Source: Aliiglaciecola lipolytica (GTDB lineage Bacteria; Pseudomonadota; Gammaproteobacteria; Enterobacterales; Alteromonadaceae). Taken from it: a DNA stretch of 64,000 nucleotides. Position numbers and translations under genes: made by a program. Below are positions 6,366 to 42,244 of the stretch, one piece after another. The notes under the pieces are model-generated. The model saw only the letters and a program-made list of their open reading frames with translations. It was not told the origin of the DNA and made no database searches. The stretch is taken from NCBI RefSeq assembly GCF_018860635.1, contig NZ_JAHKPT010000026.1:124321-188320 (forward strand). Direction: 5' to 3'. Position 1 is the stretch's first letter; each line of letters starts with the position of its first letter.

Positions 6366-6373
6366 TATTTTTC

Positions 6374-7567: not shown

Positions 7568-7704
7568 ATTAATTTCACCTTTATTCAAAAAGAGTAAGTG
7601 CTTACATCAAACACCACATCAAAGACATTTAGATGTTGAGTGTTTAAGCGTTATAAAGGGACAATGTGGTTCTCACATTGTCCTAACCTTTCCAGATGAT
7701 TTTT

Positions 7705-11247: not shown

Positions 11248-12195
11248 TTAATATTGTGCTGTGGCCATCTGAAACCCCTTCGGCAATCCAGCTTCAGGTG
11301 TAAAGCCATACAAATCAACTTCAACAGGTAAACTGTCACGCAGAATTTTTCGAGCTAACAATAAACGCTGATAGTTGATTCCTGTTTTTAATCCCATACC
11401 CTCAAGTAGAAAAACCAAGTCTTCAGTGATTATGTTACCTGAAGCACCGGGAGCAAATGGGCATCCGCCGATTCCTGCCATTGAAGAATCTATGGTTTTT
11501 AAGCCGACCTCGAGGGCGGTCATCACATTAGCGAGTCCCTGACCACGAGTATTGTGCAAATGAATACCTGTAAGTCTGTCTTTGCCCACTAGCTCCCAAA
11601 TCCCGAGAGTTAATCGCTTCACTTGATTTGGGGTACCGAAGCCTGTGGTATCCGATAAGCCCACTTCGTCACAACCAGCTTCAATTAATTTCTCAGCCAT
11701 CTCGAAAACTTTAGACTCAGGTACATTTCCTTCTAAAGTGCAACCAAAGGCAGTAGATAATCCACCTTCCAATATCGGTTTTTGCGGATTATCTGATTGA
11801 TTAATCAATTCTCGAATTTTTGCAACTTCTTGAATTACTTGAGCGTGTGTCCGGCGTACATTTTTTAAACTATGGGTTTCAGACACCGACAAAGGAATAG
11901 TTATTTTATGTGCACCGGCTTTTATTGCATCTTGAGCTCCCCGATAGTTCGGGACCAACACAGCCACATTTAAGCCCGGAATTGTGCGCGCATGAGCGAC
12001 TATTTCAGCGGTATCAGCTAACTGAGGAAGAATACTCGCTGGTACGAATGAACCGACTTCAATTTCAGGAATGCCAGCCGCGGCTAACGCACTAACCCAG
12101 CGTTTTTTATCATTAGTAGACATAATTGGTTTGATACTTTGCAAACCATCTCGTGGGCCTACTTCACTAATTTCCACATCTATATCTGGATTCAT
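11248..12195 (-). CDS. Hydroxymethylglutaryl-CoA lyase family enzyme
   Basis: 315 residues, DRE-TIM fold. EVGPRDGLQ (11-19) holds the catalytic Arg/Asp, the metal-binding HLHNTRG histidines are H212 and H214, and the active-site Cys signature GIGGCPFAPGA has C245. All key residues of HMG-CoA lyase are present, so it should cleave a 3-hydroxy-3-methyl acyl-CoA to an acyl-CoA and a keto acid. No leucine-degradation partners (MCC, isovaleryl-CoA dehydrogenase) are beside it; it pairs instead with the 2Fe-2S reductase. The CoA-transferase at 40855 could supply a CoA ester. A related substrate such as a citramalyl-CoA-like ester is possible. Confidence 0.85.
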   Translation of the reverse strand: MNPDIDVEISEVGPRDGLQSIKPIMSTNDKKRWVSALAAAGIPEIEVGSFVPASILPQLADTAEIVAHARTIPGLNVAVLVPNYRGAQDAIKAGAHKITIPLSVSETHSLKNVRRTHAQVIQEVAKIRELINQSDNPQKPILEGGLSTAFGCTLEGNVPESKVFEMAEKLIEAGCDEVGLSDTTGFGTPNQVKRLTLGIWELVGKDRLTGIHLHNTRGQGLANVMTALEVGLKTIDSSMAGIGGCPFAPGASGNIITEDLVFLLEGMGLKTGINYQRLLLARKILRDSLPVEVDLYGFTPEAGLPKGFQMATAQY

Positions 12196-12598: not shown

Positions 12599-14179
12599 GT
12601 GAATAGCAGAAGTGATATATCACAGGTTTTAGAAAGCTTAGTAAAATTTGTTGGTCAAGAACACGTTTTAACCGATTCCTATTCTTGTAGTCTCTATGCG
12701 CAAGATGTTTTTACTAAAGAAAAACCTGCTATTGCCGTTGTTCAGCCAGGCTCTACTAGCGAATTAGCTGACGTTGTTAAAACAGCTACAGCACACAAAT
12801 ATATCACTATCCCCCGCGGTGGAGGTATGTCGTACACCAGTGGATATGTGCCGCAACAAGACAATTCTATCATTATTGATATGAGTAGAATGTCTAAAGT
12901 GCTAGAAATAAATGAACAGGATATGTACGTCACAGTTGAGTGTGGATGTACATGGAAAGCGCTTTATGAAGCATTGAAAGGTACCGGTTTGCGTACTCCA
13001 TGCTGGGGAACATTGTCAGGAATTTACGCTACAGTAGGTGGCGGGTTATCACAAAATGGTATGTTTTGGGGATCCGGTCACTTTGGAGCTATAGGTGACT
13101 CTGTTATCAGTATCGAAGTCGTACTTGCTGACGGTTCAATAGTAGAAACCGGATCAGCAGCTCAAGTCAATGGCACTCCTTTTTTCCGCCATTTTGGACC
13201 AGATTTAACTGGCTTATTTGTTGGCGATACTGGCTCGTTAGGATTTAAAACACGGGCAACATTTCGCTTAATGCCCGAATTAACTGCCAGAGAATACATT
13301 TCGATGGACTTTAAGAGTTCGGATGATGCATTAACTACGATGAGTGAAATTTCTCGTCGTGGTTTAGCCATGGAATGTTTCGGATTCGATCCGTTTTTGC
13401 AAGCGCAGCGCAAACAACGGGAGAGTTTAGCCTCTGATGCTAAAGCACTAGTTGGTTTTATGAAATCAGCAGGGTCTATTGGCCAAGCCATCAAACAAGG
13501 ATCTAAGATAGCGTTTGCTGGCAGAGGTTTTATGGATGATGTTGATTTTTCAATACATGCATTTGTAGAAGAGCGTTCACCACAAGCGGCAAAACAATGT
13601 CTTGATGATATCCGCGCCATTGTGAAAAAAAATAACGGTAAAGAGATTGAAAATACGATTCCCAAAATCCTCCGAGCGAACCCTTTTGGTCCAGTAAATA
13701 ATATGGTCGGCCCAAATGGTGAGCGTTGGGTACCCGTTCATGGTCAATTCCCTCACTCAAAAGTCATCCCTGCGTTTAATGCTGCTGAAGCCATTTTTAC
13801 TAGTCACAAAGCTGAAATGGAACGATTGAATATTGGTGTTGGTTATTTATTTGCGGTTATTTCTACCAATGCATTCGTCATTGAGCCGGTATTTTTTTGG
13901 CAAGACTGTCTCAACGAATTGCACGAAAAAAGCGTAGAGTCGGCCCATTATAATAAATTGAAAAAGTTTGACGAAAACATCGAAGCCCGTGACGCCGTTA
14001 CCAAGATAAAAAAAGAAATAGCGGCAAAATTCAGTGAGATGGGTGGTGTGCATTTCCAAATAGGAAAGAGTTATGCCTATAAAGAAGGTCTGAAACCAAC
14101 AGCTTTACAACTCATTGAACGTATCAAAAGGCTAGTTGATCCCGAGCGACTTGTTAATCCAGGCTCTTTAGGATTATAA
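12599..14179 (+). CDS. FAD-binding oxidase/dehydrogenase, vanillyl-alcohol-oxidase/4-cresol-dehydrogenase type
   Basis: About 526 residues. The N-terminal FAD_binding_4 fold is shown by VVQPGSTSELADVVK, PRGGGMSYTSG and GTLSGIYATVGGGLSQNG. The C terminus ends in the family's VDPERLVNPGSLGL. These flavoenzymes oxidise phenolic side chains, alcohols or 2-hydroxy acids. I choose GTG at 12599 because GGAG lies seven bases before it; a TTG at 12572 in the same frame has no site. It is the first gene of a plus-strand run with an aldo/keto reductase, an MFS carrier and a TonB receptor, suggesting an uptake-and-oxidation unit. Confidence 0.8.
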   Translation: MNSRSDISQVLESLVKFVGQEHVLTDSYSCSLYAQDVFTKEKPAIAVVQPGSTSELADVVKTATAHKYITIPRGGGMSYTSGYVPQQDNSIIIDMSRMSKVLEINEQDMYVTVECGCTWKALYEALKGTGLRTPCWGTLSGIYATVGGGLSQNGMFWGSGHFGAIGDSVISIEVVLADGSIVETGSAAQVNGTPFFRHFGPDLTGLFVGDTGSLGFKTRATFRLMPELTAREYISMDFKSSDDALTTMSEISRRGLAMECFGFDPFLQAQRKQRESLASDAKALVGFMKSAGSIGQAIKQGSKIAFAGRGFMDDVDFSIHAFVEERSPQAAKQCLDDIRAIVKKNNGKEIENTIPKILRANPFGPVNNMVGPNGERWVPVHGQFPHSKVIPAFNAAEAIFTSHKAEMERLNIGVGYLFAVISTNAFVIEPVFFWQDCLNELHEKSVESAHYNKLKKFDENIEARDAVTKIKKEIAAKFSEMGGVHFQIGKSYAYKEGLKPTALQLIERIKRLVDPERLVNPGSLGL

Positions 14180-28231: not shown

Positions 28232-28278
28232 GTTTTCACCTTTTAGACTTTATTATTGGGTCGTGTGTAGAGTTAACG

Positions 28279-29499: not shown

Positions 29500-29676
29500 A
29501 ATTTTTCTTCCACATGTCTAATGTTTAAATATATTGGTATCAAAGCAAATGCCGTGATTGAAAATTTATTGTAAATTGACCCAACTTTAAGATGACGCAC
29601 ACTTGTTCCAATCGAGTTAGACAAATAAAAGTCTGTTAAGCATCAAATGACCAAACTGATAAAATCAAGTAATAAA

Positions 29677-29988
29677 CTAAAGTGATGCAAAGTACGCTGC
29701 TAGATCCGTTATTTCTTTGTCATTTAACGGCTTTGCTAACAAGTTCATCATCGGATCTTTACGTTCACCACTACGAAAAAGTTTTAGTTGATTTTCCATA
29801 TATGGACCGTGCTGACCTGCTAAATTCGGCCAAATAGGGCCATAACTAATACCAGCACTGCCATGACAACCAACACACCCATCTTTAATTGCGAGCTTTT
29901 TTCCAGCTTCGACATCACCAGCTAAGGCGTCTAAAGAGGGGACTAACGCAATCAATAACACTAGGATGACTTTAAATTTTATCTGCAT
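29677..29988 (-). CDS. Periplasmic c-type cytochrome (c553-like)
   Basis: 103 residues. Signal peptide to about residue 24, one haem site C38-V-G-C41-H42 and a distal Met in the DPMMNLLAK region. The start is ATG 29988 with GGAG six bases before it. It is a close paralogue of the cytochrome at 42245: CHGSAGIS..PIWPNLAGQ and FR.GERK.P.M are shared. Directly downstream of the flavin amine-oxidase-like gene (58 bp), suggesting it accepts electrons from that Tat-exported flavoprotein. Confidence 0.85.
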   Translation of the reverse strand: MQIKFKVILVLLIALVPSLDALAGDVEAGKKLAIKDGCVGCHGSAGISYGPIWPNLAGQHGPYMENQLKLFRSGERKDPMMNLLAKPLNDKEITDLAAYFASL

Positions 29989-30046
29989 ATCAAACTCCAA
30001 CATTTACTCATTCGGTATTCATTATTTTCTAAAAATCGAAATTGGT

Positions 30047-31471
30047 TTATACCAAACGAGATAAAATCTCCTGCGTGACGCGCTCACTTGATTCAAGCGC
30101 ACCTTCCATACCTGATGACCACTGAGCAGTATGCTCGCCTGCAAAGTGGAGGTTGCCAGCCGGTTTAGCCATAGATTCGCTATAACGACTAACCTGACCA
30201 GGATGCCAAACGGCAAAAGAACCTTTTGACATAGGCTGTTGCTGCCAAGAATTCACTTTAACGAACCGCACTGATCCTTTTGCCTCAGGTAATGCTCTGT
30301 AAAATTCTTTTTGGATTAATGCGCTGGCTTCGGAAATCGACATTTTGTCTAAGGCCTCAACGGATTGACCATTTATCCAAACCGTAAGGTTGGTGATACG
30401 CCCCACCTGACTAGGGTCGGTTGCCATAACACGCTCAATGACAGTGTCAGCCCATACATTTGGTAATATGCCTGAGCCTTCCCAGAACGGTTTTTCAACT
30501 TCGAAATAGGCTTGATACACCTGACTGTAAACAAGCTTATTAATTGCTTCATTTTGCAGGGCTGGTAGACCAGGAATAGATACGTCTCGCAATGTAGAAA
30601 ACGGTAAAGAGCTAATCACATAACTTGCTTGATGTTGGGAGCCATCGGCACAAGTCACATGCATTTTATTGCCTTTTTGAACAATCGATGTAACCACTTT
30701 ATTCTTTAAAACTGGAGCTTTAATTGCTTTCGCCATAGCTTCAGGTAAACGCTGATTGCCATTTGCAACCATTCTCACACCACCGGGAGTTTGCATTGAT
30801 TGATACAGTAATCTGTTAGTCCGATGTTGAAATAGTAATGAAGTATCTTCTAAGGTACGGCCGTAGTTATTAGTGCGTCCGATAATATCAATGGCTTCGG
30901 GAGAAAAACCTTTTTCAGCTAATAGGTTAGCCACCGGAACATCCAATCCAAAATTAGCTTTTTTGAGCCAATCATCAGGAGAACTTAAAGGCGGTCTTCC
31001 CAATACAGTTAACAACGCTCTATCTGGCGGTAATGAACGGTACTTTTCGGGAAAAGGATTATATTTTGAGGTTGGCCAATCAGTTGGCAAGACTCTTTGA
31101 CCTTTGACAAAGAAAGTTTGTCTTATAGGCTCGTTGCCTAACATAAAGTCGACTTGATTTAATGGAACGCCTAGACGCAAAGCCGTGTATAAAGTACGTC
31201 CATAATTAGAACCAATTGTTTGACCACCAGCCTCTGGTTTGCCCGGCACATCATCTAAGGTGAATAAGCGACCACCAATTCTATCCCGGCCTTCTAAAAC
31301 AGTAACGGATAGTCCCGCTTGCTCTAACAAATGGGCAGAATTCAAACCTGATAAACCTGCTCCAATGATTATAACATCGGTTTTTCCATTTCCCCATGAA
31401 AGCGGCGGAAACATCGCGGCTCCAGCCAATGTGGCAGTGGATTGGAGAAATCGTCTTCGGTTCAACTTCAT
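30047..31471 (-). CDS. Tat-exported flavin amine oxidase-like oxidoreductase
   Basis: 474 residues. Twin-arginine leader MKLNRRRFLQ followed by a hydrophobic stretch ending near LSWG, so periplasmic. FAD site GAGLSG at 37-42 with E60 and the GRDRIGGR block, and the C-terminal FAD block LHFAGEHTAQWSSGMEGALESSE typical of monoamine oxidase/phytoene-desaturase-fold enzymes. Substrate unknown; it could oxidise an amine or a saturated ring. The following cytochrome makes it more likely a dehydrogenase than an oxidase. An FNR/FixK-type box lies 88 bp before its start. Confidence 0.82.
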   Translation of the reverse strand: MKLNRRRFLQSTATLAGAAMFPPLSWGNGKTDVIIIGAGLSGLNSAHLLEQAGLSVTVLEGRDRIGGRLFTLDDVPGKPEAGGQTIGSNYGRTLYTALRLGVPLNQVDFMLGNEPIRQTFFVKGQRVLPTDWPTSKYNPFPEKYRSLPPDRALLTVLGRPPLSSPDDWLKKANFGLDVPVANLLAEKGFSPEAIDIIGRTNNYGRTLEDTSLLFQHRTNRLLYQSMQTPGGVRMVANGNQRLPEAMAKAIKAPVLKNKVVTSIVQKGNKMHVTCADGSQHQASYVISSLPFSTLRDVSIPGLPALQNEAINKLVYSQVYQAYFEVEKPFWEGSGILPNVWADTVIERVMATDPSQVGRITNLTVWINGQSVEALDKMSISEASALIQKEFYRALPEAKGSVRFVKVNSWQQQPMSKGSFAVWHPGQVSRYSESMAKPAGNLHFAGEHTAQWSSGMEGALESSERVTQEILSRLV

Positions 31472-31558: not shown

Positions 31559-31572
31559 TTGATATTTGTCAA
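31559..31572. promoter_or_regulatory. FNR/FixK-type box before the amine-oxidase/cytochrome operon
   Basis: TTGAT-ATTT-GTCAA: nine of ten half-site bases match TTGAT/ATCAA. Position 88-101 bp upstream of the translation start fits direct control. Confidence 0.7.
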
Positions 31573-31674: not shown

Positions 31675-32382
31675 CTAGCATTCAGCCAATTCGCTTAACG
31701 CAGGTAAATTCAAAATTTGTAGGTGATTTAGTTTGGGGAAAGCGACCAAACCGTCGGATTTTAACTTAGCCAAACAACGACTCACCGTTTCTATGGTTAA
31801 CCCCAAATAGTCAGCCATATCTTGACGGGACATATACAATTCAATGCGATCAACACGGGCACCGGGTAATCGTTCTAATAATTGCATGAACAAGAAACAT
31901 AATCGTTCTAGCGCTTTTTTCTGACCTAAAACATAAAGTTGTTCCATCACTCTAGAAAATATGGCCGATTTAATCTGTTCCATATTTTGCTTAAGGTGAC
32001 CGCCTTCTTCACTAAGGCTATTTAGTTTTTTGCGACTGAATTTGTATAGTTCAACTTTGGTTAAGCAGCGAACCGCACAATCATAATTTATTGAATGGGT
32101 TAATCCAATGAAATCACCGGGAAATAAAAAACCAATGATTTGTCGTCTGCCATTACTGAAGATTCGCTCAATCGCTACAGTTCCGGAGATCACGTTATAA
32201 ACAAAATCAGCAGGCGTATCTTGGCGAAATAAATACTCGCCTTCATCGCACTTGGATTGTTCAGCATAGGAATCCAAACGGTCCAATTCATTAGGTGTCA
32301 TGCCATGAAATAACAGGCAATCGTTAAGCACTGTATTGGTATAAGTAGGACGTATATGTTTAGGTATAAATATTGTTGACAT
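31675..32382 (-). CDS. Crp/Fnr-family transcription regulator without FNR iron-sulfur cysteine cluster
   Basis: 235 residues. Cyclic-nucleotide-binding-like beta barrel (about 25-125), dimer helix (125-160) and winged helix-turn-helix (about 163-228). The recognition helix reads IE198TVS201R202, the ExxSR pattern that reads TTGA half-sites in FNR and FixK. The N terminus has only C22 and C45, not the FNR C-x2-C-x5-C set, so oxygen sensing by a 4Fe-4S cluster is unlikely in the usual form. Start is ATG 32382 with AAGGA; longer forms lack a site. A perfect FNR box lies 114 bp upstream, which suggests autoregulation. Confidence 0.85.
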   Translation of the reverse strand: MSTIFIPKHIRPTYTNTVLNDCLLFHGMTPNELDRLDSYAEQSKCDEGEYLFRQDTPADFVYNVISGTVAIERIFSNGRRQIIGFLFPGDFIGLTHSINYDCAVRCLTKVELYKFSRKKLNSLSEEGGHLKQNMEQIKSAIFSRVMEQLYVLGQKKALERLCFLFMQLLERLPGARVDRIELYMSRQDMADYLGLTIETVSRCLAKLKSDGLVAFPKLNHLQILNLPALSELAEC

Positions 32383-32495
32383 ATCATTATTCCTTTTTAA
32401 CAAGATAATTACATGAATTTTGATTACTAGCAAGTACTTAGCTGCATTTTTGATCAGCAACTTTTAAAGCAAACAGCATACCAAAATCCTGATTT

Positions 32496-32509
32496 TTGAT
32501 ATTTATCAA
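32496..32509. promoter_or_regulatory. Perfect FNR/ANR box
   Basis: TTGAT-ATTT-ATCAA, all ten half-site bases match the FNR/ANR consensus. Located 114-127 bp before the start of the Crp/Fnr gene. Confidence 0.8.
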
Positions 32510-32555: not shown

Positions 32556-32569
32556 AATGATATATCATT
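32556..32569. promoter_or_regulatory. 14-bp palindromic operator candidate
   Basis: AATGATATATCATT, identical to its reverse complement. The first 12 bases recur at 40651-40662 before the opposing operon and 12 of 14 at 12223-12236. Its binding protein is not identified. Confidence 0.5.
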
Positions 32570-33111: not shown

Positions 33112-34269
33112 ATGACGAGTACCGTCGAGTTTATTACCGCAAATAAGATTATTTGTAACATTGGAGCTATTGAGCAAATCGCTGAGCATTGTCGCGCCCT
33201 TGGCATTAAACAGCCTCTTATCGTCACCGATCCTGGATTGGTAAAAGCGGGCCTAGTTACCCATATAACCGCGCCTTTAAACAAAGCCGGAATCACCGCC
33301 GTAATTTATAGTGATATTCAGGCAGATCCACCAGAATCATTGGTATTGTCTGCTGCAGAATTTGCAAAACAACTTCATGTAGACGGGGTAATAGGCTTTG
33401 GTGGAGGTAGCAGTTTAGACGTCGCTAAACTACTTGCTGTGTTGGTAAACTCGAAGCAGCCTTTGAAGGATATGTACGGGTTGGACAAAATTAGAGATAA
33501 ACGTTTACCGCTAATTTTACTTCCTACTACTGCTGGGACAGGATCGGAAGTTACTCCCATCTCAATTATAACTACCGGAGAAACCACAAAATCCGGTGTC
33601 GTTTCGCCCTCTTTATTACCTGACATAGCGATTTTGGATGCCACCTTAACAGTAGGGCTTCCACCGGCAATTACAGCTGCTACTGGTATCGATGCCATGG
33701 TGCATGCAATAGAAGCTTTTACCGGAAAAATTAAGAAAAACCCTTATTCAGACATGTTAGCAAAAGAAGCGTTGCGCCTAATGTCGCAAAACTTGTTAGA
33801 AGCAGTGAATAATGGCAGTAACCTAGAAGCTCGTTCAAACATGCTGCTAGGCGCACTAATGGCAGGACAAGCTTTTGCCAACTCACCAGTGGCAGCGGTC
33901 CATGCCCTAGCCTACCCATTAGGCGGTAATTACCATATTCCCCATGGCCTGAGTAACTCATTGGTTTTACCCCACGTGTTACGTTTTAACGCACCTGTAG
34001 CGGCCGATTTGTATGCTGAACTGCTGCCTAGTGTCACCTCGGGGCAAAATCATCAAACCGGTCAAAAAGGCTGTGATGCATTCATTAATGTCATCGACAA
34101 TTTAATTACTGACGTTAGCTTGCCCAAAAGTTTACAGGCATTAAATGTTCCCCGTGAAGACCTAGGAATGTTGGCCGACGAAGCGATGCAACAGCAAAGA
34201 CTACTAGTTAATAATCCCCGCGAGGTGACTCGCGAAAATGCCCTCGACATATACGAATCGGCCTATTGA
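33112..34269 (+). CDS. Iron-containing alcohol dehydrogenase (group III; maleylacetate-reductase-like)
   Basis: 385 residues. NAD binding at GGGSSLDVAK (97-106) and TTAGTGSE (139-146). All four metal ligands are present: D194, H198, H264 and H278. It would interconvert an alcohol and a carbonyl with NAD(P)H; maleylacetate reductases belong to the same superfamily. First of three plus-strand genes with the KKCGH lyase and an amidase. AAAGGAG ribosome site. It could reduce the aldehyde or keto product of the following lyase or a ring-cleavage product; I cannot choose. Confidence 0.88.
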   Translation: MTSTVEFITANKIICNIGAIEQIAEHCRALGIKQPLIVTDPGLVKAGLVTHITAPLNKAGITAVIYSDIQADPPESLVLSAAEFAKQLHVDGVIGFGGGSSLDVAKLLAVLVNSKQPLKDMYGLDKIRDKRLPLILLPTTAGTGSEVTPISIITTGETTKSGVVSPSLLPDIAILDATLTVGLPPAITAATGIDAMVHAIEAFTGKIKKNPYSDMLAKEALRLMSQNLLEAVNNGSNLEARSNMLLGALMAGQAFANSPVAAVHALAYPLGGNYHIPHGLSNSLVLPHVLRFNAPVAADLYAELLPSVTSGQNHQTGQKGCDAFINVIDNLITDVSLPKSLQALNVPREDLGMLADEAMQQQRLLVNNPREVTRENALDIYESAY

Positions 34270-34338
34270 AAATGCAATAAACAGCAACGTTGTTTTAGTT
34301 CGAGATTTTATTAAATATTAATGGAGAAAAGTTAAAAA

Positions 34339-35199
34339 ATGGCTAGTCCAATACTGAGAGAAAAATTAGACAAAGGTGAATTTATATTTGCCCCTGGAAT
34401 TCAAGACATGATCACAGCGGTAGTTGCGAACAAGGTTGGATTTGAAGTAGTTTATGGCACTGGCTACTGGTTAACAGCTTCAGCTTATGGCATAGCCGAC
34501 GCTGGAATAGTAAGTTACACTCAGATGGTTGACCGTATGCGTACTCTTGTTAAAACCAGTAATGCAGCGGTAATGGCCGATGCAGACACAGGTTTTGGCG
34601 GATTATTAAACGTACATCACACTGTCCGTGGTTACGAAGAAGCGGGCGTTTCTGCCATCCAAATCGAAGACCAAGAGTTTCCAAAAAAATGCGGTCACAC
34701 GCCTAATCGCAAAGTGGTTCCTTGCGCTGACATGGTCGAAAAAATAAAGGTTGCTGTTGACGCTCGTACTGACAGAAACATGTTAATCATAGCTCGAACA
34801 GACGCCCGTCAAGCCGAAGGTCTAGACGCTGCTATCGCCAGAGCTCAAGCCTATTACGAGGCTGGTGCAGACGTCCTTTTTGTTGAAGCATTGGAAACCA
34901 AAGAAGAAATGCGTAGAGCTTGTAAAGAAGTTGGCGGTCCAATGTTTGCAAATATGTCAAATGGTGGCTTCACGCCTATTTTGACCGTTGAAGAAATGAA
35001 AGAGGTGGGATATGCCATTGCTATCGCCCCTTCATTAACCAGTTTAGCGGCAGCCAATGCAGTAGAAAAATCGCTGATTGCAATGAAAGAACAAGGTAGC
35101 GCTGAACCAGAAGGCGTGCCAATCAACGACTTCAGCGAATTCTGTTCTTTAATAGGATTCGAAGATGTATGGGCTTTTGAAAAGAAATGGGCAAAATAA
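34339..35199 (+). CDS. Isocitrate-lyase/PEP-mutase family carbon-carbon lyase
   Basis: 286 residues, TIM barrel. Magnesium site DADTGFGG (81-88) and IEDQEFPKKCGH (109-120) with the catalytic C118 of true lyases; PEP mutases lack KKCGH. Known activities in this branch are 2-methylisocitrate lyase, 2,3-dimethylmalate lyase and oxaloacetate hydrolase; each cleaves or hydrolyses a malate-like acid. No prpC or prpD is nearby, so the methylcitrate cycle is not indicated. Position between an alcohol dehydrogenase and an amidase, opposite an operon with a LeuCD-type hydratase, favours cleavage of a substituted malate to pyruvate plus a monocarboxylate. Confidence 0.87.
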   Translation: MASPILREKLDKGEFIFAPGIQDMITAVVANKVGFEVVYGTGYWLTASAYGIADAGIVSYTQMVDRMRTLVKTSNAAVMADADTGFGGLLNVHHTVRGYEEAGVSAIQIEDQEFPKKCGHTPNRKVVPCADMVEKIKVAVDARTDRNMLIIARTDARQAEGLDAAIARAQAYYEAGADVLFVEALETKEEMRRACKEVGGPMFANMSNGGFTPILTVEEMKEVGYAIAIAPSLTSLAAANAVEKSLIAMKEQGSAEPEGVPINDFSEFCSLIGFEDVWAFEKKWAK

Positions 35200-35223
35200 A
35201 CAAGGTAGAGAAAGAGTAATTAC

Positions 35224-35859
35224 ATGACTATTAGTGAAGATATTGATCAAAATTACGCAAATGTATACGGCAACAAAGTAGGCTATGGTAAAAAACCAGC
35301 GTTACTGCTGATTGACTTTGTAGAAGCCTATTATGATAAATCTTGCGAACTGTATGCCGATGTTGAAGATGCGTTAGCATCCGCGCAACGGGTTCTAGAA
35401 GCCGCTCGAAAAGCCGGCATTTTAGTTATCTATACAAACGTTGTTTATCATAAATCTGGGGTAAACGGCGGAGCCTTTTTTAAGAAAGCTAAACCTTTAC
35501 GATATTTAACAGAAGGTTCGCCTATGGGTGCTTGGGCAGGAACATTGAAACCTACCGAAGACGAGTTGGTTATATCCAAACAATACCCAAGTGCTTTTTT
35601 TGGTACATCCTTAAGTTCTACCTTAGCGGCTTATGGTGCAGACAGCGTGATATTAACAGGCTTAACAACCAGTGGTTGCGTACGTGCTAGTTGTGTTGAT
35701 GCTTGTTCACATGGCTTTATACCGATAATAGTAGAAGAAGCTTGTGGTGATCGTCATGAAGATCCACACAAGGCTAACTTGTTTGACATGAACGCAAAAT
35801 ATGGCGATGTTGTTAGTGAGGCAGATATCATAACTTACCTGCAATCTTTGACCGCATAA
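35224..35859 (+). CDS. Isochorismatase-fold amidase (N-carbamoylsarcosine amidase/maleamate amidase type)
   Basis: 211 residues, cysteine hydrolase. The triad is complete: D31 (LLIDFVEAY), K119 (ISKQYPSAFFGT) and C152 (TTSGCVRAS). This TSGCVRA form is that of amidases such as N-carbamoylsarcosine amidohydrolase and maleamate amidase, not of isochorismatase. It would release ammonia from a half-amide or carbamoyl group. Last gene of the plus operon, ending in a shared terminator. A paralogue heads the opposing operon at 40574. Confidence 0.87.
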   Translation: MTISEDIDQNYANVYGNKVGYGKKPALLLIDFVEAYYDKSCELYADVEDALASAQRVLEAARKAGILVIYTNVVYHKSGVNGGAFFKKAKPLRYLTEGSPMGAWAGTLKPTEDELVISKQYPSAFFGTSLSSTLAAYGADSVILTGLTTSGCVRASCVDACSHGFIPIIVEEACGDRHEDPHKANLFDMNAKYGDVVSEADIITYLQSLTA

Positions 35860-35874
35860 AAGCGCTAGTGCAAT

Positions 35875-35910
35875 AAAAAAGTCAATCAACTAAGGTTGAT
35901 TGACTTTTTT
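35875..35910. terminator. Bidirectional terminator between the convergent operons
   Basis: Ten-bp perfect stem GTCAATCAAC / GTTGATTGAC, TAAG loop, with six A's before and six T's after, so it works on both strands. Confidence 0.93.
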
Positions 35911-35942
35911 AGTTAAAGCGACTTACCTGCTCTTAACCCCAT

Positions 35943-36569
35943 CTAATTTTGCAAATACAACCAACTATGTTGTTTGCGTACTTGCTGCTCAAATGCACTA
36001 ATTTCTTTTTCATGTTGCAGAGTGACACCAATACTGTCTAAACCATTTAGCAGCATTTCTTTGCTACCCGTCTCTATATCAAATTCAAATTTTAGACCTT
36101 GGGGGCTTTCAACTTTTTGCTCCTGCAAATCTATTTTAAGCTTTAAATGTTGCGGATCTTGTTGAGTTTCAGCAGATAACTGCATGACAGCTTCGTTACT
36201 AAGCACAACAGGTAGTATGCCGTTGCGCATACAATTCTGGTAAAAAATAGCGCCAAAGCTAGGAGCAATAATGGCCCGTATACCATATTCAGCCAAAGCC
36301 CAAACCGCATGTTCACGTGATGAACCACAGCCAAAATTGTTACCCGCTAGCAACACTGTGGTATTAGCGTATTCTGGTTTATTTAAGATGAAGTCGGGGT
36401 TGAGTTCGCGAGAATCGGGCATCACATAACGCCAAGAAGCAAATAGCCCCTCACCCAAGCCCTTTTTAGATACTCGACGCATTTCCCTACTCGGAATAAT
36501 GGCATCAGTATCAATATTGATTCTTAATAATGGCGCGGCAATACCACAGTGAGTTGTAAATGCTTTCAT
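35943..36569 (-). CDS. LeuD-like small subunit of a second, divergent hydro-lyase
   Basis: 208 residues. NFGCGSSREHAVWAL shows the IPM-isomerase/aconitase small-subunit fold, but the substrate loop is IPSREMRRVSKKGLGEGLF where LeuD has LPKQYLK. This loop selects substrate in the family, so a substrate other than isopropylmalate is likely, for example a substituted maleate or citraconate. The start overlaps the large-subunit stop (ATGA) and GGAG lies in the preceding gene. Last gene of the five-gene minus operon. Confidence 0.85.
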   Translation of the reverse strand: MKAFTTHCGIAAPLLRINIDTDAIIPSREMRRVSKKGLGEGLFASWRYVMPDSRELNPDFILNKPEYANTTVLLAGNNFGCGSSREHAVWALAEYGIRAIIAPSFGAIFYQNCMRNGILPVVLSNEAVMQLSAETQQDPQHLKLKIDLQEQKVESPQGLKFEFDIETGSKEMLLNGLDSIGVTLQHEKEISAFEQQVRKQHSWLYLQN

Positions 36570-37981
36570 CGATCACTCCTTGGAACCGCACGCGGATCGG
36601 TAATACAACCGTATATGGCACTGGCGGCCACGGTTTCTGGACTGGCTAAATGGGTACGAGTCTCTGGACCTTGGCGAGATTCAAAATTACGATTACTCGT
36701 AGATAAAACCCGTTGTTGTTTACCAAAGTGCTCCCCCCCAGCATAGAAGCACATGGAACATCCACTTTCTCTCCACTCAAAACCTGCATCTAAGAAAACC
36801 TGATGTAAACCTTCACGCTCGGCAGCCGCTTTTACTTGCTGCGAACCGGGAACACAAATGGCTTTCACATGAGTAGCCACTTTTTTACCTGCTAAAATAG
36901 CTGCAGCTTTACGAAGATCTTCAATTCGCGAATTGGTACATGAACCGATAAATGCGCAATCTATCTTGAGGCCGAGCAACTTATCGCCTGACTTTAAGTC
37001 TTGATAAGCTAGAGCACGTGTTGCCGCTGTGCGTGCATCTTCAGAAGCTAAGGTATTTAATTCAGGAACGGTTTGGCTGATACCACAAGCATGTTGTGGG
37101 CTTGTACCCCAAGTGATGGTAGGTTCAATATCTGCAACGTCTATTTTAATTTCAGTATCGAACAAGGCATCCTCATCGGTGCGCAGATTATGCCAATATT
37201 CTACAGCAGTGTCCCATTGCTCGCCTTTAGGCGCATAAGGGCGACCTTGTAAATAGTCGATGGTTTTTTGATCCGGTGCTACTAAACCTGTAAATGCCGC
37301 AAACTCTACAGCCATATTACATAGAGTCATTCTCGCTTCTATCGACAGGGCTTCTACTGCAGGACCAGCAAATTCTATTGCATGACCAGCGCCACCGTGG
37401 GCACCAAATTTACTGATAAGGTGGAGAATCATATCTTTGGCTGTGACACTTGAATTCAGTTCGCCTTCAAACCAAACCCGCATCAATTTGGGTTTATTAA
37501 TACGTAGAGTTTGAGTCGCCATTGCATGTTCAGCTTCAGAAGAACCAATCCCCCAAGCAGCCGCACCTAAAGCACCTTGAGTACAGGTGTGACTATCCGG
37601 GCAAACTAGGGTTAAACCTGGTTGTACGATACCCAATTCTGGACTAATGACATGGGCGATACCTTGTCGTTCATCACCTATGTCAAATAAGGTAATGCCC
37701 GCGGCTTTGGCTTCTTTACGTGTAGCTTGAATAAAGTCTTTCCCTGAAGGCATGACAGTTTCATCACCACGACCTGGAAATGTATCGACAATATGATCCA
37801 TGGTGCAAAAAACTTGGTCTGGATGACGAACTTTTCGTCCAGTTTCGGCCAAACTTTGCAACGCAATAGAACCTGTTCTTTCGTGTAAAAAGACTCGGTC
37901 AATGTAAACTAAGTAAGTCCCATCAGGTAATTGTTTAACCTGATGAGCATCCCATATCTTCTGAAAAAGTGTTTTGGACAT
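36566..37981 (-). CDS. LeuC-like large subunit of a second, divergent hydro-lyase
   Basis: 471 residues from ATG 37981 (AAGAG before it; a TTG six codons earlier has no site). Cluster cysteines C348 (GSCTNSR), C408 and C411 (SGCSMC) are kept. The active-site neighbourhood differs from the LeuC at 969: CPDSHTCTQGA (127-137) for [18 protein letters not shown] for DHNVPTT and SMCFYAGGEHFG for [11 protein letters not shown]. With the PSREMRR-type small subunit this points to a dedicated hydratase. 2,3-Dimethylmaleate hydratase and citraconate/maleate hydratases are known enzymes of this fold. Substrate here is inferred from neighbours only. Confidence 0.85.
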   Translation of the reverse strand: MSKTLFQKIWDAHQVKQLPDGTYLVYIDRVFLHERTGSIALQSLAETGRKVRHPDQVFCTMDHIVDTFPGRGDETVMPSGKDFIQATRKEAKAAGITLFDIGDERQGIAHVISPELGIVQPGLTLVCPDSHTCTQGALGAAAWGIGSSEAEHAMATQTLRINKPKLMRVWFEGELNSSVTAKDMILHLISKFGAHGGAGHAIEFAGPAVEALSIEARMTLCNMAVEFAAFTGLVAPDQKTIDYLQGRPYAPKGEQWDTAVEYWHNLRTDEDALFDTEIKIDVADIEPTITWGTSPQHACGISQTVPELNTLASEDARTAATRALAYQDLKSGDKLLGLKIDCAFIGSCTNSRIEDLRKAAAILAGKKVATHVKAICVPGSQQVKAAAEREGLHQVFLDAGFEWRESGCSMCFYAGGEHFGKQQRVLSTSNRNFESRQGPETRTHLASPETVAASAIYGCITDPRAVPRSDR

Positions 37982-38029
37982 TATTATCTCTTGTCTCAAG
38001 GATAAGGAGGGTTCTAACGCCCCTACAAA

Positions 38030-38953
38030 TTATTGCTGTGCTTGCCAGCTCTGGTAAATATCACTCGCGCTAGCACTCCAAACTCCATCTTTACTACTGA
38101 TGTATTCAAGTACTTTCTCGAAGCAAGCAATACGGTGGGGTTGACCCAACATCCATGGATGTATATTCAATGCTAATAGACGCCCACCTTGTGTTTCGGC
38201 TTCACTTAACAACAGGTCACATGCATCTTGAATTTGCTCAACATAGCTATCTTCACTGTGCAGATTGTTTTGCAAAATAAAAAAATCATCCAGTTCATTA
38301 GATAAAGGCATGTTGCTGAGTTGACCAGTTTCAGTTCTAAAGGCATAGGGCAACTCATCGTTAACCCAATCGCACATGTAGTCGATACCATTTTGCTGCA
38401 ATAACTCAGGGGTATTTTCTGATTGCAAGCGACCAGGACTTAACCAGCCTTTCACCGGCTGCTCAAAGCGCTCACGTAAAGTTTGCACACTTTTAGCAAC
38501 CCAACTTGCTTCATCGTTTGGCGAAACTTCGCCATGATGCAACATGTCCATCTGCCAACCATGGGCAATGACTTCATTACCTCGCTCTTTAATGACATCC
38601 ATCAAATAAGGTGCGCGTTCAACCATGGCGCCATTAATCGCGATAGTTGGTTTGATATTAAATTTATCTAATGCTTTGAAGATTCGAAATATACCGACGC
38701 GATTACCGTAATCACGCAAACTAAAGTGGCGTAAATCTGGATAAGGCATTTTCATACCACCAGGCACGGCAACTGGGTTTGCACCCTGGTTCAAAGGAAA
38801 AAACTGGACGTTGATATTTACCCAAAGCGCTAGTTTTTTGTTATTTGGCCAGACAATAGGTTTACGCTCTGTCAGCATCGACCAATCATATAAATCGTGG
38901 TCCATTCCGTAATGTCGTTTGGGATATTGAAGATAAGAATCATCTAGACTCAT
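38030..38953 (-). CDS. Polysaccharide-deacetylase-fold hydrolase, PuuE type (copy 2)
   Basis: 307 residues, no signal peptide. LRDYGNRVGIFR (79-90) is the block shared by the three copies. The first metal position reads WVNINVQFF in place of TFDD, the second region is AHGWQMDMLHH (130-140) and the C-terminal block LNIHPWMLGQPHRI is of PuuE type. Probably a cytoplasmic cyclic-amide or imide hydrolase. It follows copy 3 after 2 bp with an AGGAGGG site overlapping the preceding gene end. Tandem arrangement with copy 3 suggests either two substrates or a two-subunit enzyme. Confidence 0.75.
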   Translation of the reverse strand: MSLDDSYLQYPKRHYGMDHDLYDWSMLTERKPIVWPNNKKLALWVNINVQFFPLNQGANPVAVPGGMKMPYPDLRHFSLRDYGNRVGIFRIFKALDKFNIKPTIAINGAMVERAPYLMDVIKERGNEVIAHGWQMDMLHHGEVSPNDEASWVAKSVQTLRERFEQPVKGWLSPGRLQSENTPELLQQNGIDYMCDWVNDELPYAFRTETGQLSNMPLSNELDDFFILQNNLHSEDSYVEQIQDACDLLLSEAETQGGRLLALNIHPWMLGQPHRIACFEKVLEYISSKDGVWSASASDIYQSWQAQQ

Positions 38954-38955
38954 GA

Positions 38956-39897
38956 TTATTTCCCTCCTTGCTTGGCAGCTATATCAGCGACACTATCGTC
39001 ATAACAATGCTGCATGTAATAACTTGCTATTTCGCGCCCAGTAGCTACCCAAACATCACTGTGTCCGGTGATGTATTCCAAGGCTTCTTCGTAGGCTTTT
39101 AGACGATGTGGGCAACTCACTTGATAGTTGTGAGTTGGAATACACATGATGGTTCCACTCTCTTCGCCTTCTTGGTACAAACGGTCAAAATTTGCTTTGA
39201 GCATTTTTCCATATTGACGAGGTGTAACTTTATTAGATACGTAAGCAATGGTGTCATTCATCTCTAATGAATAGGGAATTGACACAAACTTTTTACCAGA
39301 ACGAGTATGGATAGGAGTTGGTTGATCATCATGAAATAAATCACAAGTGTAAAAGCCGGCATCATCGCCAAATAATTCCGTTCCCACTTCGGCAAACAAG
39401 TCAATAGTATGGTCACTGTGCGATAGTGCTGGGGCTAAGTAACCAGCACATTTCTGTCCGGTATGTTTATAGATGGTTTCAATTGAGTCGCGGATCATTT
39501 CTCGTTCCTGCTCCACGCTCATTCCATAAGTATAACGAGTGTTATAGATACCATGACTGAAAAACTCCCAGTCCCGTTCTTTACACAGGCTAATAATCTC
39601 AGGATGGTGATCACATAATGCGGTAGATAATGATATGGATCCGCGCACACCATATTTATCCAGAAGCTGCATTTGACGCATATGACCCACACGATTACCG
39701 TAATCACGAATACCATATCCGGCAATGGCAGGATAAGGTTGCGGCCAAGCCTTACGAGATGGATTTGCAGGTGGATCTAGCTCATAAAACTCAATATTGG
39801 GTGCTACCCAAAATGCGACTTTAGCGCCATTTGGCCAAGTGATTTTAGGACGTTTGTGATAAGGCCAATAATCATAGTAACCGGGATCTGTATGCAT
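38956..39897 (-). CDS. Polysaccharide-deacetylase-fold hydrolase, PuuE type (copy 3)
   Basis: 313 residues, cytoplasmic. IRDYGNRVGHMR (63-74), FWVAPNIEFYEL (29-40) at the first metal site and FFSHGIYNTRYTYG (112-125) in place of the H-x3-H motif; C-terminal IPTHNYQVSCPHRL. As in the other two copies the canonical zinc triad is incomplete, which fits the metal-independent PuuE allantoinase group rather than chitin deacetylases. Second gene of the operon headed by the amidase at 39915, so hydrolysis of a cyclic amide followed by amide hydrolysis is an obvious inferred order. Confidence 0.75.
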   Translation of the reverse strand: MHTDPGYYDYWPYHKRPKITWPNGAKVAFWVAPNIEFYELDPPANPSRKAWPQPYPAIAGYGIRDYGNRVGHMRQMQLLDKYGVRGSISLSTALCDHHPEIISLCKERDWEFFSHGIYNTRYTYGMSVEQEREMIRDSIETIYKHTGQKCAGYLAPALSHSDHTIDLFAEVGTELFGDDAGFYTCDLFHDDQPTPIHTRSGKKFVSIPYSLEMNDTIAYVSNKVTPRQYGKMLKANFDRLYQEGEESGTIMCIPTHNYQVSCPHRLKAYEEALEYITGHSDVWVATGREIASYYMQHCYDDSVADIAAKQGGK

Positions 39898-39914
39898 TAA
39901 AAAAACTCCTTCTA

Positions 39915-40574
39915 CTATTTTTCTAACCAGTCATATACTTCTTGTACGGCTAATACATCAGCATATTTCAATGATAAATCGGTAAGGTTAGCGAAGTGAT
40001 AGCTTTCATGTTTGTCAGCAACACACTCGATCGGCACTATAGTGCGATATCCGCGTGACAAACTATCTACCGCAGCGGCTCTGATGCAACCAGAAGTTGA
40101 ACCACCGGTTAATATAACGGTATCCACTTGGTGCCATACGCATAGGCTTTGCAGTTGAGTTTCAAAAAACGGAGAAGGCATTTTTTTACAGTAAAAAACA
40201 TCTTTTTTACGGTCGACTTGCAAACGGTCATCAAGCTCTGAGCGCTCACTATCAAATTTAATATTCTGTAAACTATCGGGAGTATCTGTGCGGGTTCCCC
40301 AGATACCAGCATCTTCACCAGAATCCATATATGCCACATTAGTCCAAACAACAGGCCAACCCAATGCACGGAATTTTTCCGCAAGTTTATTGACATATTC
40401 AAGCTGTCGCGGGTCTGTCTCGTAGGCAGTTTTAAAAAGATCGGTTCGAGTGTAGGCCTTTTGCAAATCTATATTGACCAAAATAGCCTTATTTCCAAAA
40501 CCAAAACGCTTTCGGGCTGGATTAGCCTGAACCTCCGCAAAAATCTGACGGGCCGTTTTTTCAGATAATTCCAT
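39915..40574 (-). CDS. Isochorismatase-fold amidase (copy 2)
   Basis: 219 residues. Triad D36 (VNIDLQKAY), K130 (YCKKMPSPFFET) and C163 (STSGCIRAA), all in place. Amidase-type SGCIRA signature as in N-carbamoylsarcosine amidase and maleamate amidase. About 30-35% similar by eye to the copy at 35224, so an old duplication or separate recruitment. It heads the minus operon amidase - two PuuE-type hydrolases - LeuCD-type hydratase. AGGAG site before ATG; the candidate operator at 40651 is 77 bp upstream. Confidence 0.86.
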   Translation of the reverse strand: MELSEKTARQIFAEVQANPARKRFGFGNKAILVNIDLQKAYTRTDLFKTAYETDPRQLEYVNKLAEKFRALGWPVVWTNVAYMDSGEDAGIWGTRTDTPDSLQNIKFDSERSELDDRLQVDRKKDVFYCKKMPSPFFETQLQSLCVWHQVDTVILTGGSTSGCIRAAAVDSLSRGYRTIVPIECVADKHESYHFANLTDLSLKYADVLAVQEVYDWLEK

Positions 40575-40650: not shown

Positions 40651-40773
40651 AATGATATATCAGCATATCTTTTATGCGTAAGTATTGATACTTTTATGTA
40701 CCCTTAAACACTCTTATGATTCACAAAAAATGAATCTTGAACATCTCCACTAAGCACTAACTTAAGAGTGTTT
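40651..40773. promoter_or_regulatory. Operator candidate and nested inverted repeats before the amidase operon
   Basis: AATGATATATCA at 40651-40662 repeats twelve bases of the palindrome at 32556. Next to it, AAACACTCTTA (40706-40716) is the exact inverse of TAAGAGTGTTT (40763-40773), and inside them GATTCA and TGAATC form a smaller hairpin around an A-rich loop. The nested structure could be an RNA hairpin or paired operator. Confidence 0.4.
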
Positions 40774-40854: not shown

Positions 40855-42048
40855 TTAATCAGTGGTAAGGGCTTTTACTACTTTTAAATCAATTAATTCT
40901 GCTATTTGTTTATCACTGTATCCGGCGTCTTTAAGCACCCGAATGGTATCTTCGCCTTCTTTTGGTAAATCATGATGTAGAACAGTACGTTTACCATCTA
41001 ATTCAATCGGTAAAGAAGGCAGGTTAGCGATACCTTGGGGTGTTGTAACCGGTAGTAATCCACCACTATTAAGGTGCGGATCATTAAACAAATCAGAGGG
41101 AGTATTGATTGGCGCAAAGGGAATACCCGCACGCTCTAGACGGTCCATCAGGGTTTGCTTATCTAAGCCACTAAACAATTCCTTGATTACCGGAATAATT
41201 CTATCTTTCTGCTTCACCCTATCATTGTTTTTATCTAGGCTGCTGTCTGCTGCAAATTCGTGTAGTTCAAATTCTTTACAAAAGTGTTTCCACAAAGTGT
41301 CACTGACAACCCCAACAAAAACACGTTCGTCATTTTTACAATTGAAAATTTCGTAGATTGACCAAGCACTTCTGCGCACAGACATAGGAGGGGGAGCTTC
41401 ACCTAGCACCACTTCTTGGGCCATATGCTGACCAACAAAATATGCGGTAGTCTCAAATAATGAACTAGTAACGTGACGACCTTTACCGCTCGTATGGCGT
41501 TCATGCAAAGCAGAAAGAATGCCGATAACACCAAACATACCGCCAGTGATATCAATAACAGAAGAGCCAGCCCGCATAGGCTTGTCAGGAAGACCTGTCA
41601 TATAAGCCAGTCCACCCATCATTTGCGTCACTTCATCCAACGCAGTACGATTTTCATATGGGCCGGTTAAAAAGCCTTTTAATGAACAATAAATAAGTCT
41701 TGGATTCAGTTGACTCATTGCTGCATAACCAAACCCAAGCTTTTCCATCGCACCAGGTCTGAAGTTTTCAATCAACACATCCGCTTCGCGAATTAAGTTT
41801 AACGCAACCTCTTTACCTTCTGCTGATTTGAGATCTATACACACACTGCGCTTATTGCGGTTATACATGGGAAAGTAACCAGCACCCGAACCTTTTAGGC
41901 GGCGCGTTTTATCACCTTCAATAGGCTCTATTTTTGTCACCACTGCACCTAAATCTGCTAGTACCACACCAGTAGCAGGCCCCATAACCATATGTGTAAA
42001 TTCTACGACTTTGAGGTCTTCAAGTGGGTATGAATTTCCTGATGACAT
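40855..42048 (-). CDS. Family III (CaiB/BaiF) CoA-transferase
   Basis: 397 residues from ATG 42048 (CAGGAT ribosome site; an earlier in-frame start adds a hydrophobic, unlikely stretch). LKVVEFTHMVMGPATGVVLADLGA and IEPIEGDKTR open the protein as in formyl-CoA and carnitinyl-CoA transferases. The likely catalytic Asp is D138 (YENRTALDEVTQMMGG). It moves CoA between carboxylic acids, for example from succinyl-CoA to a dicarboxylate. The HMG-CoA-lyase-like enzyme at 11248 could use the product. Single-gene unit with its own terminator, upstream cytochrome gene 197 bp away. Confidence 0.87.
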   Translation of the reverse strand: MSSGNSYPLEDLKVVEFTHMVMGPATGVVLADLGAVVTKIEPIEGDKTRRLKGSGAGYFPMYNRNKRSVCIDLKSAEGKEVALNLIREADVLIENFRPGAMEKLGFGYAAMSQLNPRLIYCSLKGFLTGPYENRTALDEVTQMMGGLAYMTGLPDKPMRAGSSVIDITGGMFGVIGILSALHERHTSGKGRHVTSSLFETTAYFVGQHMAQEVVLGEAPPPMSVRRSAWSIYEIFNCKNDERVFVGVVSDTLWKHFCKEFELHEFAADSSLDKNNDRVKQKDRIIPVIKELFSGLDKQTLMDRLERAGIPFAPINTPSDLFNDPHLNSGGLLPVTTPQGIANLPSLPIELDGKRTVLHHDLPKEGEDTIRVLKDAGYSDKQIAELIDLKVVKALTTD

Positions 42049-42244
42049 AAATAATAATCCTGTAATAAAGGGTAGGCCAAATGCCCTAATGAGCATATGT
42101 TATAGCTTTATACCTTTTATATCAAGAAATTCTACTCATGAGCTAAAATAATGATGAGTTTTAATTACTTAAGTTCTAAAAACATTGATATAAAAGGACA
42201 ATTTCACTGCAAAGCGAAAAATCTGAAGCCAAGTTGTTATGGTT

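What the first reader, a model, noticed from the sequence alone, without database searches (positions are those of the whole stretch)
33112..40574. Convergent operons that could form a cyclic amide/imide to substituted-maleate to pyruvate route
Seen: two PuuE-type cyclic-amidase-fold enzymes, two amidase-type isochorismatase-fold proteins with complete D-K-C triads, a divergent LeuCD-type hydratase, a KKCGH lyase and an iron alcohol dehydrogenase in two operons sharing one terminator and a palindrome. Known: PuuE-fold enzymes open cyclic amides, maleamate amidases have this fold, 2,3-dimethylmaleate hydratase is a LeuCD homologue and 2,3-dimethylmalate lyase an isocitrate-lyase homologue. Inferred: these join as ring opening, half-amide hydrolysis, hydration and C-C cleavage. 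I know of no described pathway with exactly this gene set.
Basis: partly seen in the sequence, partly recalled or inferred. Interest (0 to 1): 0.78.

Follow-up and report, generated by a model that had tools for sequence, protein, structure and literature searches.

The report
Co-regulated cyclic-imide breakdown operons
Two neighbouring sets of genes in a marine bacterium look like one switchable pathway that opens a nitrogen-containing ring and splits the product into ordinary food acids; the same gene set recurs in very different bacteria, but the compound it eats is still unknown.

Summary
A trio of genes (amidase, PuuE-type A, PuuE-type B) is found in 76 of 80 related loci from three proteobacterial classes and Bacteroidota (adjacent and in order in 74), and in 8 of 9 plasmid loci. 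A LeuC-type hydratase subunit lies within about 10 kb in 39 of the 80, and 36 of those 39 also carry a C-C lyase. The LeuC copies fall in several deep groups, the window's own apart from the leucine-biosynthesis copy, and the lyase is isocitrate-lyase-like or HMG-CoA-lyase-like; recruitment for one chemistry would look like this. The palindrome AATGATATATCA occurs at only two places in the 5.03-Mb genome, one upstream of each operon, and its core is enriched upstream of GntR, amidase, HMG-CoA-lyase-like and CoA-transferase genes in relatives. PuuE-A keeps ten residues shared with true PuuE in 90 of 90 sequences; PuuE-B has mostly lost two, which suggests a catalytic/accessory pair. The substrate is not identified and no activity is shown. 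Known enzyme families, in a catabolic module that my limited literature searches did not find described.

The parts
31675..32388 (-). Crp/Fnr-family regulator (FixK-like), upstream of the Fe-ADH operon; may belong
   Evidence: Pfam cNMP_binding and HTH_Crp_2; FixK model 142 bits, cut-off 300; Crp homologues in 10 of 80 loci; FNR-type boxes at 31559 and 32496 flank it
32556..32569 (.). operator-like palindrome upstream of the + strand operon (98 nt before the Crp ORF as listed, 554 nt before Fe-ADH)
   Evidence: one of only two sites of AATGATATATCA in the genome
33112..34269 (+). iron-containing alcohol dehydrogenase; not conserved with the unit
   Evidence: Pfam Fe-ADH; 1 of 80 loci
34339..35199 (+). 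isocitrate-lyase/PEP-mutase-family C-C lyase, KKCGH motif
   Evidence: PrpB model 260 bits, cut-off 354; nearest solved relatives are 4iqd (annotated carboxyvinyl-carboxyphosphonate phosphorylmutase), petal death protein and methylisocitrate lyases, with 2,3-dimethylmalate lyase seventh; alignment
35224..35859 (+). isochorismatase-fold amidase 2
   Evidence: nearest solved relatives N-carbamoylsarcosine amidohydrolase, then chains 3ot4/3uao and 4l07; homologue as best match in 10 of 80 loci
35874..35911 (.). bidirectional terminator between the convergent operons
   Evidence: 17-bp perfect inverted repeat; folding z -6.6
35943..36569 (-). LeuD-type small subunit of the hydratase
   Evidence: loop IIPSREM where the housekeeping LeuDs of this genome and E. 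coli read IIPKQFL
36566..37981 (-). LeuC-type large subunit of the hydratase
   Evidence: in a clade of 14 (98/97) apart from housekeeping LeuC
38030..38953 (-). PuuE-type protein B, probable accessory or partner subunit
   Evidence: 78 of 80 loci; the Glu shared by PuuE and PuuE-A is Gln in 75 of 88 and the Asn before it is kept in 12 of 88
38956..39897 (-). PuuE-type protein A, probable catalytic ring-opening subunit
   Evidence: N34, E36, E39, H115, D186, D190, D191, N214, D215, H256 invariant in 90 of 90 and shared with the genome's own purine-cluster PuuE
39915..40574 (-). isochorismatase-fold half-amidase
   Evidence: D36/K130/C163 in 87 of 87; first gene of the trio
40651..40662 (.). 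operator-like palindrome about 79 nt upstream of the amidase gene
40855..42096 (-). CaiB-type CoA-transferase adjoining the operon
   Evidence: Pfam CoA_transf_3; homologue in 42 of 80 loci, down to 27% identity
25717..26520 (+). GntR-type regulator, candidate to bind the palindrome
   Evidence: homologues, 27-50% identical, in 24 of 80 loci; palindrome core upstream of 11 of 26 GntR genes, shuffles 0.27 to 0.35
11248..12195 (-). HMG-CoA-lyase-like enzyme, possible CoA-dependent alternative to the 34339 lyase
   Evidence: Pfam HMGL-like; homologues near the trio in relatives
12611..12622 (.). third palindrome-core site, in the 5' part of the FAD-oxidase ORF 12572-14179

Best explanation
This is a co-regulated, horizontally mobile catabolic module for a cyclic imide or a similar cyclic amide. 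PuuE-type A, probably with PuuE-type B as a partner subunit, opens the ring to a half-amide. The isochorismatase-fold enzyme removes ammonia to give a substituted maleate-type diacid. The LeuCD-type Fe-S hydratase adds water to give a substituted malate. A C-C lyase then splits it to a 2-oxo acid (pyruvate if the hydroxylated carbon bears a methyl group) and a second acid: the isocitrate-lyase-type enzyme directly, or CaiB plus the HMG-CoA-lyase-like enzyme through a CoA ester. A GntR-type regulator acting on TGATATATCA probably switches both operons. Shown by sequence: the gene set, its conservation, several LeuC groups and two lyase types, conserved residues, and the shared palindrome. Inferred: each reaction, their order, the pairing of A and B, the regulator that binds, and the class of substrate.
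For: Trio in 76 of 80 loci of two phyla, adjacent and in order in 74, in 8 of 9 plasmid loci, adjacent in 7, and adjacent in 5 of 7 loci from an even draw of the phylum. LeuC in 39 of 80, and in 34 of 59 loci of full length; with the four LeuC genes of the own genome I estimate under 2% by chance. A lyase is present in 36 of those 39. LeuC copies form several deep groups, the window's apart from the housekeeping copy. Plasmid clusters hold a gene for every step. Two palindrome sites in 5.03 Mb, one per operon; core, at one mismatch or less, upstream of GntR 11/26, HMGL 5/13, CaiB 8/54, amidase 12/85, against 0.35, 0.07, 0.82 and 1.07 in dinucleotide shuffles, but LeuC 0/21 and the two isocitrate-lyase types 0/7 and 0/23. 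PuuE residues intact in A, not in B. Published precedent for a PuuE-related cyclic imidase followed by an amidase: HxnM and HxnN of Aspergillus nidulans (PMC9304392, passages read).
Against: No substrate or activity is known. LeuC is absent from 41 of 80 loci and a lyase from 31 of 80; 21 loci are cut short, and I did not search those genomes for copies elsewhere. In the even draw LeuC lay in 2 of 7 loci and a lyase in 4 of 7. The independent-pairs test of LeuC with lyase is underpowered (4 pairs on supported branches, median p 0.25). The 80 loci are the closest relatives, not an even sample. Two picked plasmid loci (Salipiger, Rhizobium) pair the PuuE-type proteins with other amidases, the first also with hydantoinase genes, and the Acidiphilium cluster has a hydantoinase/oxoprolinase gene about 11 kb away, so the ring opener may serve several substrates. 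The window LeuCD also passes NCBIfam's isopropylmalate-dehydratase cut-offs. The palindrome core is also seen upstream of 3 of 24 archaeal-type LeuC genes (0.62 expected), inside a presumed operon.
Confidence: 0.58

Rival explanations
1. The PuuE-type proteins and amidases act on hydantoins, ureides or pyrimidine fragments (N-carbamoyl chemistry), and the LeuCD and lyase serve a separate diacid pathway that merely shares the regulator.
For: The closest solved relatives of both isochorismatase-fold proteins include N-carbamoylsarcosine amidohydrolase; RutB and BiuH models hit the 35224 protein weakly; the Salipiger plasmid locus has hydantoinase genes beside the pair, and the Acidiphilium locus one about 11 kb away.
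Against: The trio recurs with LeuCD plus lyase in distant bacteria, and in three plasmid clusters whose listed genes include no hydantoinase. The own genome has a separate PuuE in a purine cluster.
Confidence: 0.17
2. Substituted-pyridine catabolism: an upstream flavin monooxygenase and a ring-cleaving dioxygenase give a substituted N-acylmaleamate, which PuuE-A/B and the amidase hydrolyse to a substituted maleate.
For: The window FAD monooxygenase 6374-7570 is closest to PnpA and HspB of known structure, and an arylmalonate-decarboxylase/EutA-like gene lies beside it; maleamate-amidase-fold enzymes are known in such pathways (recalled).
Against: The monooxygenase is found in only 2 and the Amdase-like gene in only 1 of 80 trio loci; the 12-base palindrome, at one mismatch or less, has no site near that operon.
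Confidence: 0.12
3. Polysaccharide or sugar deacetylation: the PuuE-type proteins are true carbohydrate deacetylases and the neighbours are incidental.
For: Pfam assigns Polysacc_deac_1 to both.
Against: PuuE-A carries the residues of PuuE, and the second His of the deacetylase motif of 3qbu is not kept (Asn119 or Thr120, depending on the gap). Co-occurrence with amidase, hydratase and lyase has no place in that role.
Confidence: 0.04

Closest known systems
Nicotinate fermentation of Eubacterium barkeri, terminal steps: 2,3-dimethylmaleate hydratase and 2,3-dimethylmalate lyase (recalled)
   Same: A LeuCD-type hydratase followed by an isocitrate-lyase-family lyase (recalled)
   Different: There the ring is opened by an enamidase after reduction and the diacid arises by B12 rearrangement (recalled); here PuuE-type proteins plus an amidase precede, often with a CoA-dependent lyase option
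HxnM/HxnN of Aspergillus nidulans nicotinate utilisation (PMC9304392, passages)
   Same: A PuuE/HpPgdA-related cyclic imidase followed by an amide hydrolase
   Different: Product is 2-hydroxyglutarate; no hydratase or C-C lyase step is named in the passages read
Bacterial cyclic-imide pathway of imidase and half-amidase (maleimide, succinimide; recalled)
   Same: Ring opening, then half-amide hydrolysis
   Different: Unsubstituted products join the citric acid cycle directly and need no LeuCD or isocitrate-lyase-type lyase (recalled)
Maleamate amidase and NicF of nicotine/nicotinate degradation (4l07, 3uao; functional identities recalled)
   Same: Isochorismatase fold, D-K-C triad, maleate-type product expected
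   Different: Only distant sequence relatives; no PuuE-type pair or LeuCD there (recalled)
PuuE allantoinase (3cl6)
   Same: Fold family and shared residues of PuuE-A
   Different: Scores about a quarter of the family cut-off; own genome has a separate PuuE in a purine cluster

Membership tests
PuuE allantoinase (TIGR03212) | score above the curated cut-off of 424.6 bits | tested here: not met
   117.2 (B) and 108.2 (A) bits
PuuE allantoinase (TIGR03212) | conserved Asn/Glu/His/Asp positions of PuuE (choice of positions is mine) | tested here: met
   PuuE-A shares N34, E36, E39, H115, D186, D190, D191, N214, D215, H256 with the own-genome PuuE but differs at D65, N119 and H264; PuuE-B has Gln for the Glu in 75 of 88
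PuuE allantoinase (TIGR03212) | purine-catabolic gene context | tested here: not met
   the purine context belongs to another PuuE-like gene, G000 contig C32 (neighbours judged from sequence by eye)
cyclic imide hydrolase (HxnM / P. putida imidase) | sequence match to the characterised enzymes and imide hydrolysis | not testable with these tools
   no sequence of these enzymes was held; only the related fold 3qbu matched PuuE-A (E 1e-14)
maleamate amidohydrolase (isochorismatase fold) | D-K-C catalytic triad | tested here: met
   87 of 87
maleamate amidohydrolase (isochorismatase fold) | hydrolysis of maleamate | not testable with these tools
   needs an assay
3-isopropylmalate dehydratase LeuCD | family model scores | tested here: met
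   leuC 571.7 bits against 560.25; leuD 225.3 against 116.25
3-isopropylmalate dehydratase LeuCD | leucine operon context and grouping with housekeeping LeuC | tested here: not met
   leuABCD is on contig C13; separate clade of 14 with 98/97 support
2,3-dimethylmaleate hydratase | substrate | not testable with these tools
   no reference sequence or assay
methylisocitrate lyase PrpB | score above cut-off 354.4 | tested here: not met
   260.4 bits; a likely PrpB lies elsewhere (contig C27)
isocitrate-lyase/PEP-mutase superfamily lyase | K-K/R-CGH catalytic loop and metal-site acidic residues | tested here: met
   C118, G119, H120, D81, D83, E110, D111 invariant in 16 of 16; their roles are recalled
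E. barkeri-type nicotinate pathway | enamidase, 2-methyleneglutarate mutase, methylitaconate isomerase | not tested
   not searched for in the genome

The most novel reading that the evidence does not exclude
The module is the lower half of a route by which marine bacteria consume tetrapyrrole pigments. Dialkyl maleimides released from chlorophyll, haem or bilins (such as hematinic acid or ethylmethylmaleimide) are opened, deamidated, hydrated and split to pyruvate plus glutarate or butyrate. Hints only: in Halieaceae-type loci two alpha/beta-hydrolase clusters near the trio hit the Pfam chlorophyllase model in the one member scanned of each (32.6 bits, above the cut-off of 26; and 15.2, below it); a CpeT-family gene (cyanobacterial relatives handle bilins, recalled) lies near the trio in seven flavobacterial loci, one of them checked by Pfam; TonB receptors lie nearby in some loci; an invariant Pro in the lyases is, from memory, typical of lyases whose substrate bears a methyl group on C2.
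Probability: 0.08. Interest if true: 0.88.

Novelty: new variant of a known kind. Interest (0 to 1): 0.62.

Why it matters
A conserved gene trio with its own operator-like palindrome, found with several LeuC groups and two lyase types, marks an unassigned catabolic pathway in marine bacteria such as Alteromonadaceae, Halieaceae and Maribacter. It offers a reason for extra 'LeuCD' and 'polysaccharide deacetylase' genes that annotation probably misnames, and it gives a short list of compounds to test. If the substrate proves to be a pigment-derived maleimide, it would bear on how tetrapyrrole nitrogen is recycled.

Tried and rejected
Sugar deacetylase reading: rejected on the PuuE residues and context. 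Allantoin reading: rejected, separate PuuE-like gene in a purine cluster. Pheophorbide-oxygenase idea for the Rieske protein near the trio: not supported, the one member scanned is VanA-type. The DUF1838 structure model (pLDDT 81) is a beta-rich protein with only weak, low-TM matches including nitrobindins; it gives no function. The co-occurring 243-aa protein (pLDDT 87) resembles DUF1849 of unknown function. Ten literature searches, for this gene set, for maleimide or tetrapyrrole degradation, for chlorophyll-degradation clusters, for DUF1838 and for dimethylmaleate/imide enzymes, gave no matching pathway (listings only, apart from passages of PMC12746152 and PMC9304392); the library holds only openly licensed PMC papers, so absence there is weak evidence. 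No Rfam match at gathering score and no tRNA in the window. The independent-pairs test was underpowered.


Full report
What is there. The convergent operons share a perfect 17-bp bidirectional terminator at 35874-35911. The LeuCD is an extra copy: the genome carries a complete leuABCD operon on contig C13 and two further LeuC-like genes, one in the window at 969 and one on contig C11 that is interrupted by a stop. The genome also holds a separate PuuE-like gene in a cluster with purine genes, judged by eye from the sequences. The nearest named relative is Aliiglaciecola sp. 3_MG-2023, 98% identical in PuuE-A.

One regulon. The palindrome AATGATATATCA occurs at two places in 5.03 Mb, one upstream of each operon. 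The 10-base core TGATATATCA occurs at six places in the genome: three lie in this island (the third in the 5' part of the FAD-oxidase ORF at 12572) and the other three lie inside genes on other contigs without visible relation. Across the window and 89 fetched loci the exact core is found 11 times against 2 in reversed sequence. Within -220 to +60 of gene starts in the 89 loci, at one mismatch or less, it is found upstream of GntR 11 of 26 (mean of dinucleotide shuffles 0.35), HMG-CoA-lyase-like 5 of 13 (0.07), CaiB 8 of 54 (0.82), amidase 12 of 85 (1.07) and the 243-aa protein 7 of 20 (0.20; in part the same sites, as that gene is often divergent from the amidase). It is not enriched upstream of inner genes: LeuC 0 of 21, the two isocitrate-lyase types 0 of 7 and 0 of 23, PuuE-A 1 of 88 (0.85), PuuE-B 3 of 87 (1.5); the flavobacterial HMG-CoA-lyase type has 1 of 24 (0.28), and the archaeal-type LeuC, with 3 of 24 (0.62), is a mild exception. 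A GntR regulator is therefore the best candidate; one lies at 25717. No binding was tested.

A conserved unit. Of 80 loci found with PuuE-A, 76 hold amidase, PuuE-A and PuuE-B, adjacent and in that order in 74; of the six others four are on short or cut loci. LeuC homologues lie in 39 of 80 loci, and in 34 of 59 loci of full length; 36 of the 39 also have a C-C lyase (isocitrate-lyase type, HMG-CoA-lyase type or both), and 13 loci have a lyase without LeuC. Among full-length loci 18 have the isocitrate-lyase type, 27 the HMG-CoA-lyase type and 6 both. These loci are the closest relatives found and are not independent: on a quickly built PuuE-A tree with many weak forks, presence of LeuC changes at least 12 times over 70 rows, and the pairwise test was too small to decide. 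In seven loci outside the family, taken from an even draw of 398 genomes of the phylum in which 9 had PuuE-A, the trio was adjacent in 5, LeuC was present in 2 and a lyase in 4. In the order, 4 of 295 genomes had PuuE-A. The module is thus rare and patchy. Copies sit on plasmids typed as conjugative or mobilizable: Burkholderia plantarii p1, Sphingomonas pJE1, Sphingobium pTomTYG65b and Acidiphilium, the last with several transposase genes alongside. Bacteroidota PuuE-A form one clade that lies among Pseudomonadota sequences in the midpoint-rooted tree.

Several hydratases and lyases. LeuC copies in these loci form several groups: the window type (14 rows, 98/97), a group led by Billgrantia and Halomonas with one plasmid row (7 rows, 100/98), and two archaeal-type groups (4 rows, 100/97; 20 rows, 100/99). 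The second copy of the two sphingomonad plasmids sits weakly beside the housekeeping LeuC and the window's 969 copy (88/77). The housekeeping copies fall between the first two groups; whether the two archaeal-type groups were taken up separately cannot be said without outside sequences, and joins of long branches are unsure. LeuD copies differ from housekeeping LeuD in the loop that reads IIPKQFL in E. coli and in the own leuABCD, and IIPSREM in the window; that this loop sets substrate choice is recalled. Unlike hydratases and lyases beside one trio argue that hydration of a maleate-type diacid and its cleavage are real steps.

The ring opener. PuuE-A keeps ten Asn, Glu, His and Asp residues shared with the genome's purine-cluster PuuE in 90 of 90 sequences, while PuuE-B has Gln for the Glu in 75 of 88 and keeps the Asn before it in 12 of 88; PuuE-B keeps most of the His and Asp positions. 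Together with their adjacency this suggests a catalytic and an accessory subunit; no complex was modelled. The amidase triad is intact in 87 of 87. A published imidase of the related fold (HxnM) acts just before an amidase in Aspergillus nidulans (PMC9304392, passages).

Limits. No call identifies the substrate. Other genes near the trio vary by lineage: Rieske VanA-type, amine oxidase, DUF1838, CpeT-family, nitrilase-type. The Fe-ADH is not conserved (1 of 80), and the window's lyase subtype and second amidase are restricted (5 and 10 of 80).

Noticed in passing
window 3146-7588: A second imide-like operon: PuuE-type C, arylmalonate-decarboxylase/EutA-like protein, PnpA/HspB-like FAD monooxygenase and aldehyde dehydrogenase, followed by a TonB receptor (7705-9858).
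   Followed up: partly
window 969-3037: A third LeuCD pair, nearest to but distinct from the housekeeping copy, opposite the 3146-7588 operon.
   Followed up: partly
window 26636-31471: Proteins with Tat-like signal sequences (judged by eye), a DUF1838 beta-rich protein and a flavin amine oxidase, plus a methyltransferase and a small protein whose homologues sit near the trio in other genera.
   Followed up: partly
window 31559-31572 and 32496-32509: Two FNR-type boxes flank the Crp/Fnr gene; three such matches in the window against 0.4 expected.
   Followed up: no
L012, L015-L017, L024, L039, L087: An alternative set near the trio: PuuE-type C with, in most of these loci, CitE-like lyase, MaoC-like protein, acyl-CoA dehydrogenase and CaiB genes, perhaps a CoA-ester version of the same logic; these names were given from sequence by eye.
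   Followed up: no
L114:8953-10368 (own genome, contig C11): A further LeuC-like gene that is interrupted by a stop codon, beside a LeuD-like ORF.
   Followed up: no
L057, L069, L070, L074-L077: CpeT-family homologues near the trio in flavobacteria (28-100% identical to the one member checked by Pfam).
   Followed up: no
window 42916-44031: L-2-hydroxyglutarate-oxidase-like gene (named by eye) close to the CoA-transferase; possible link to glutarate.
   Followed up: no
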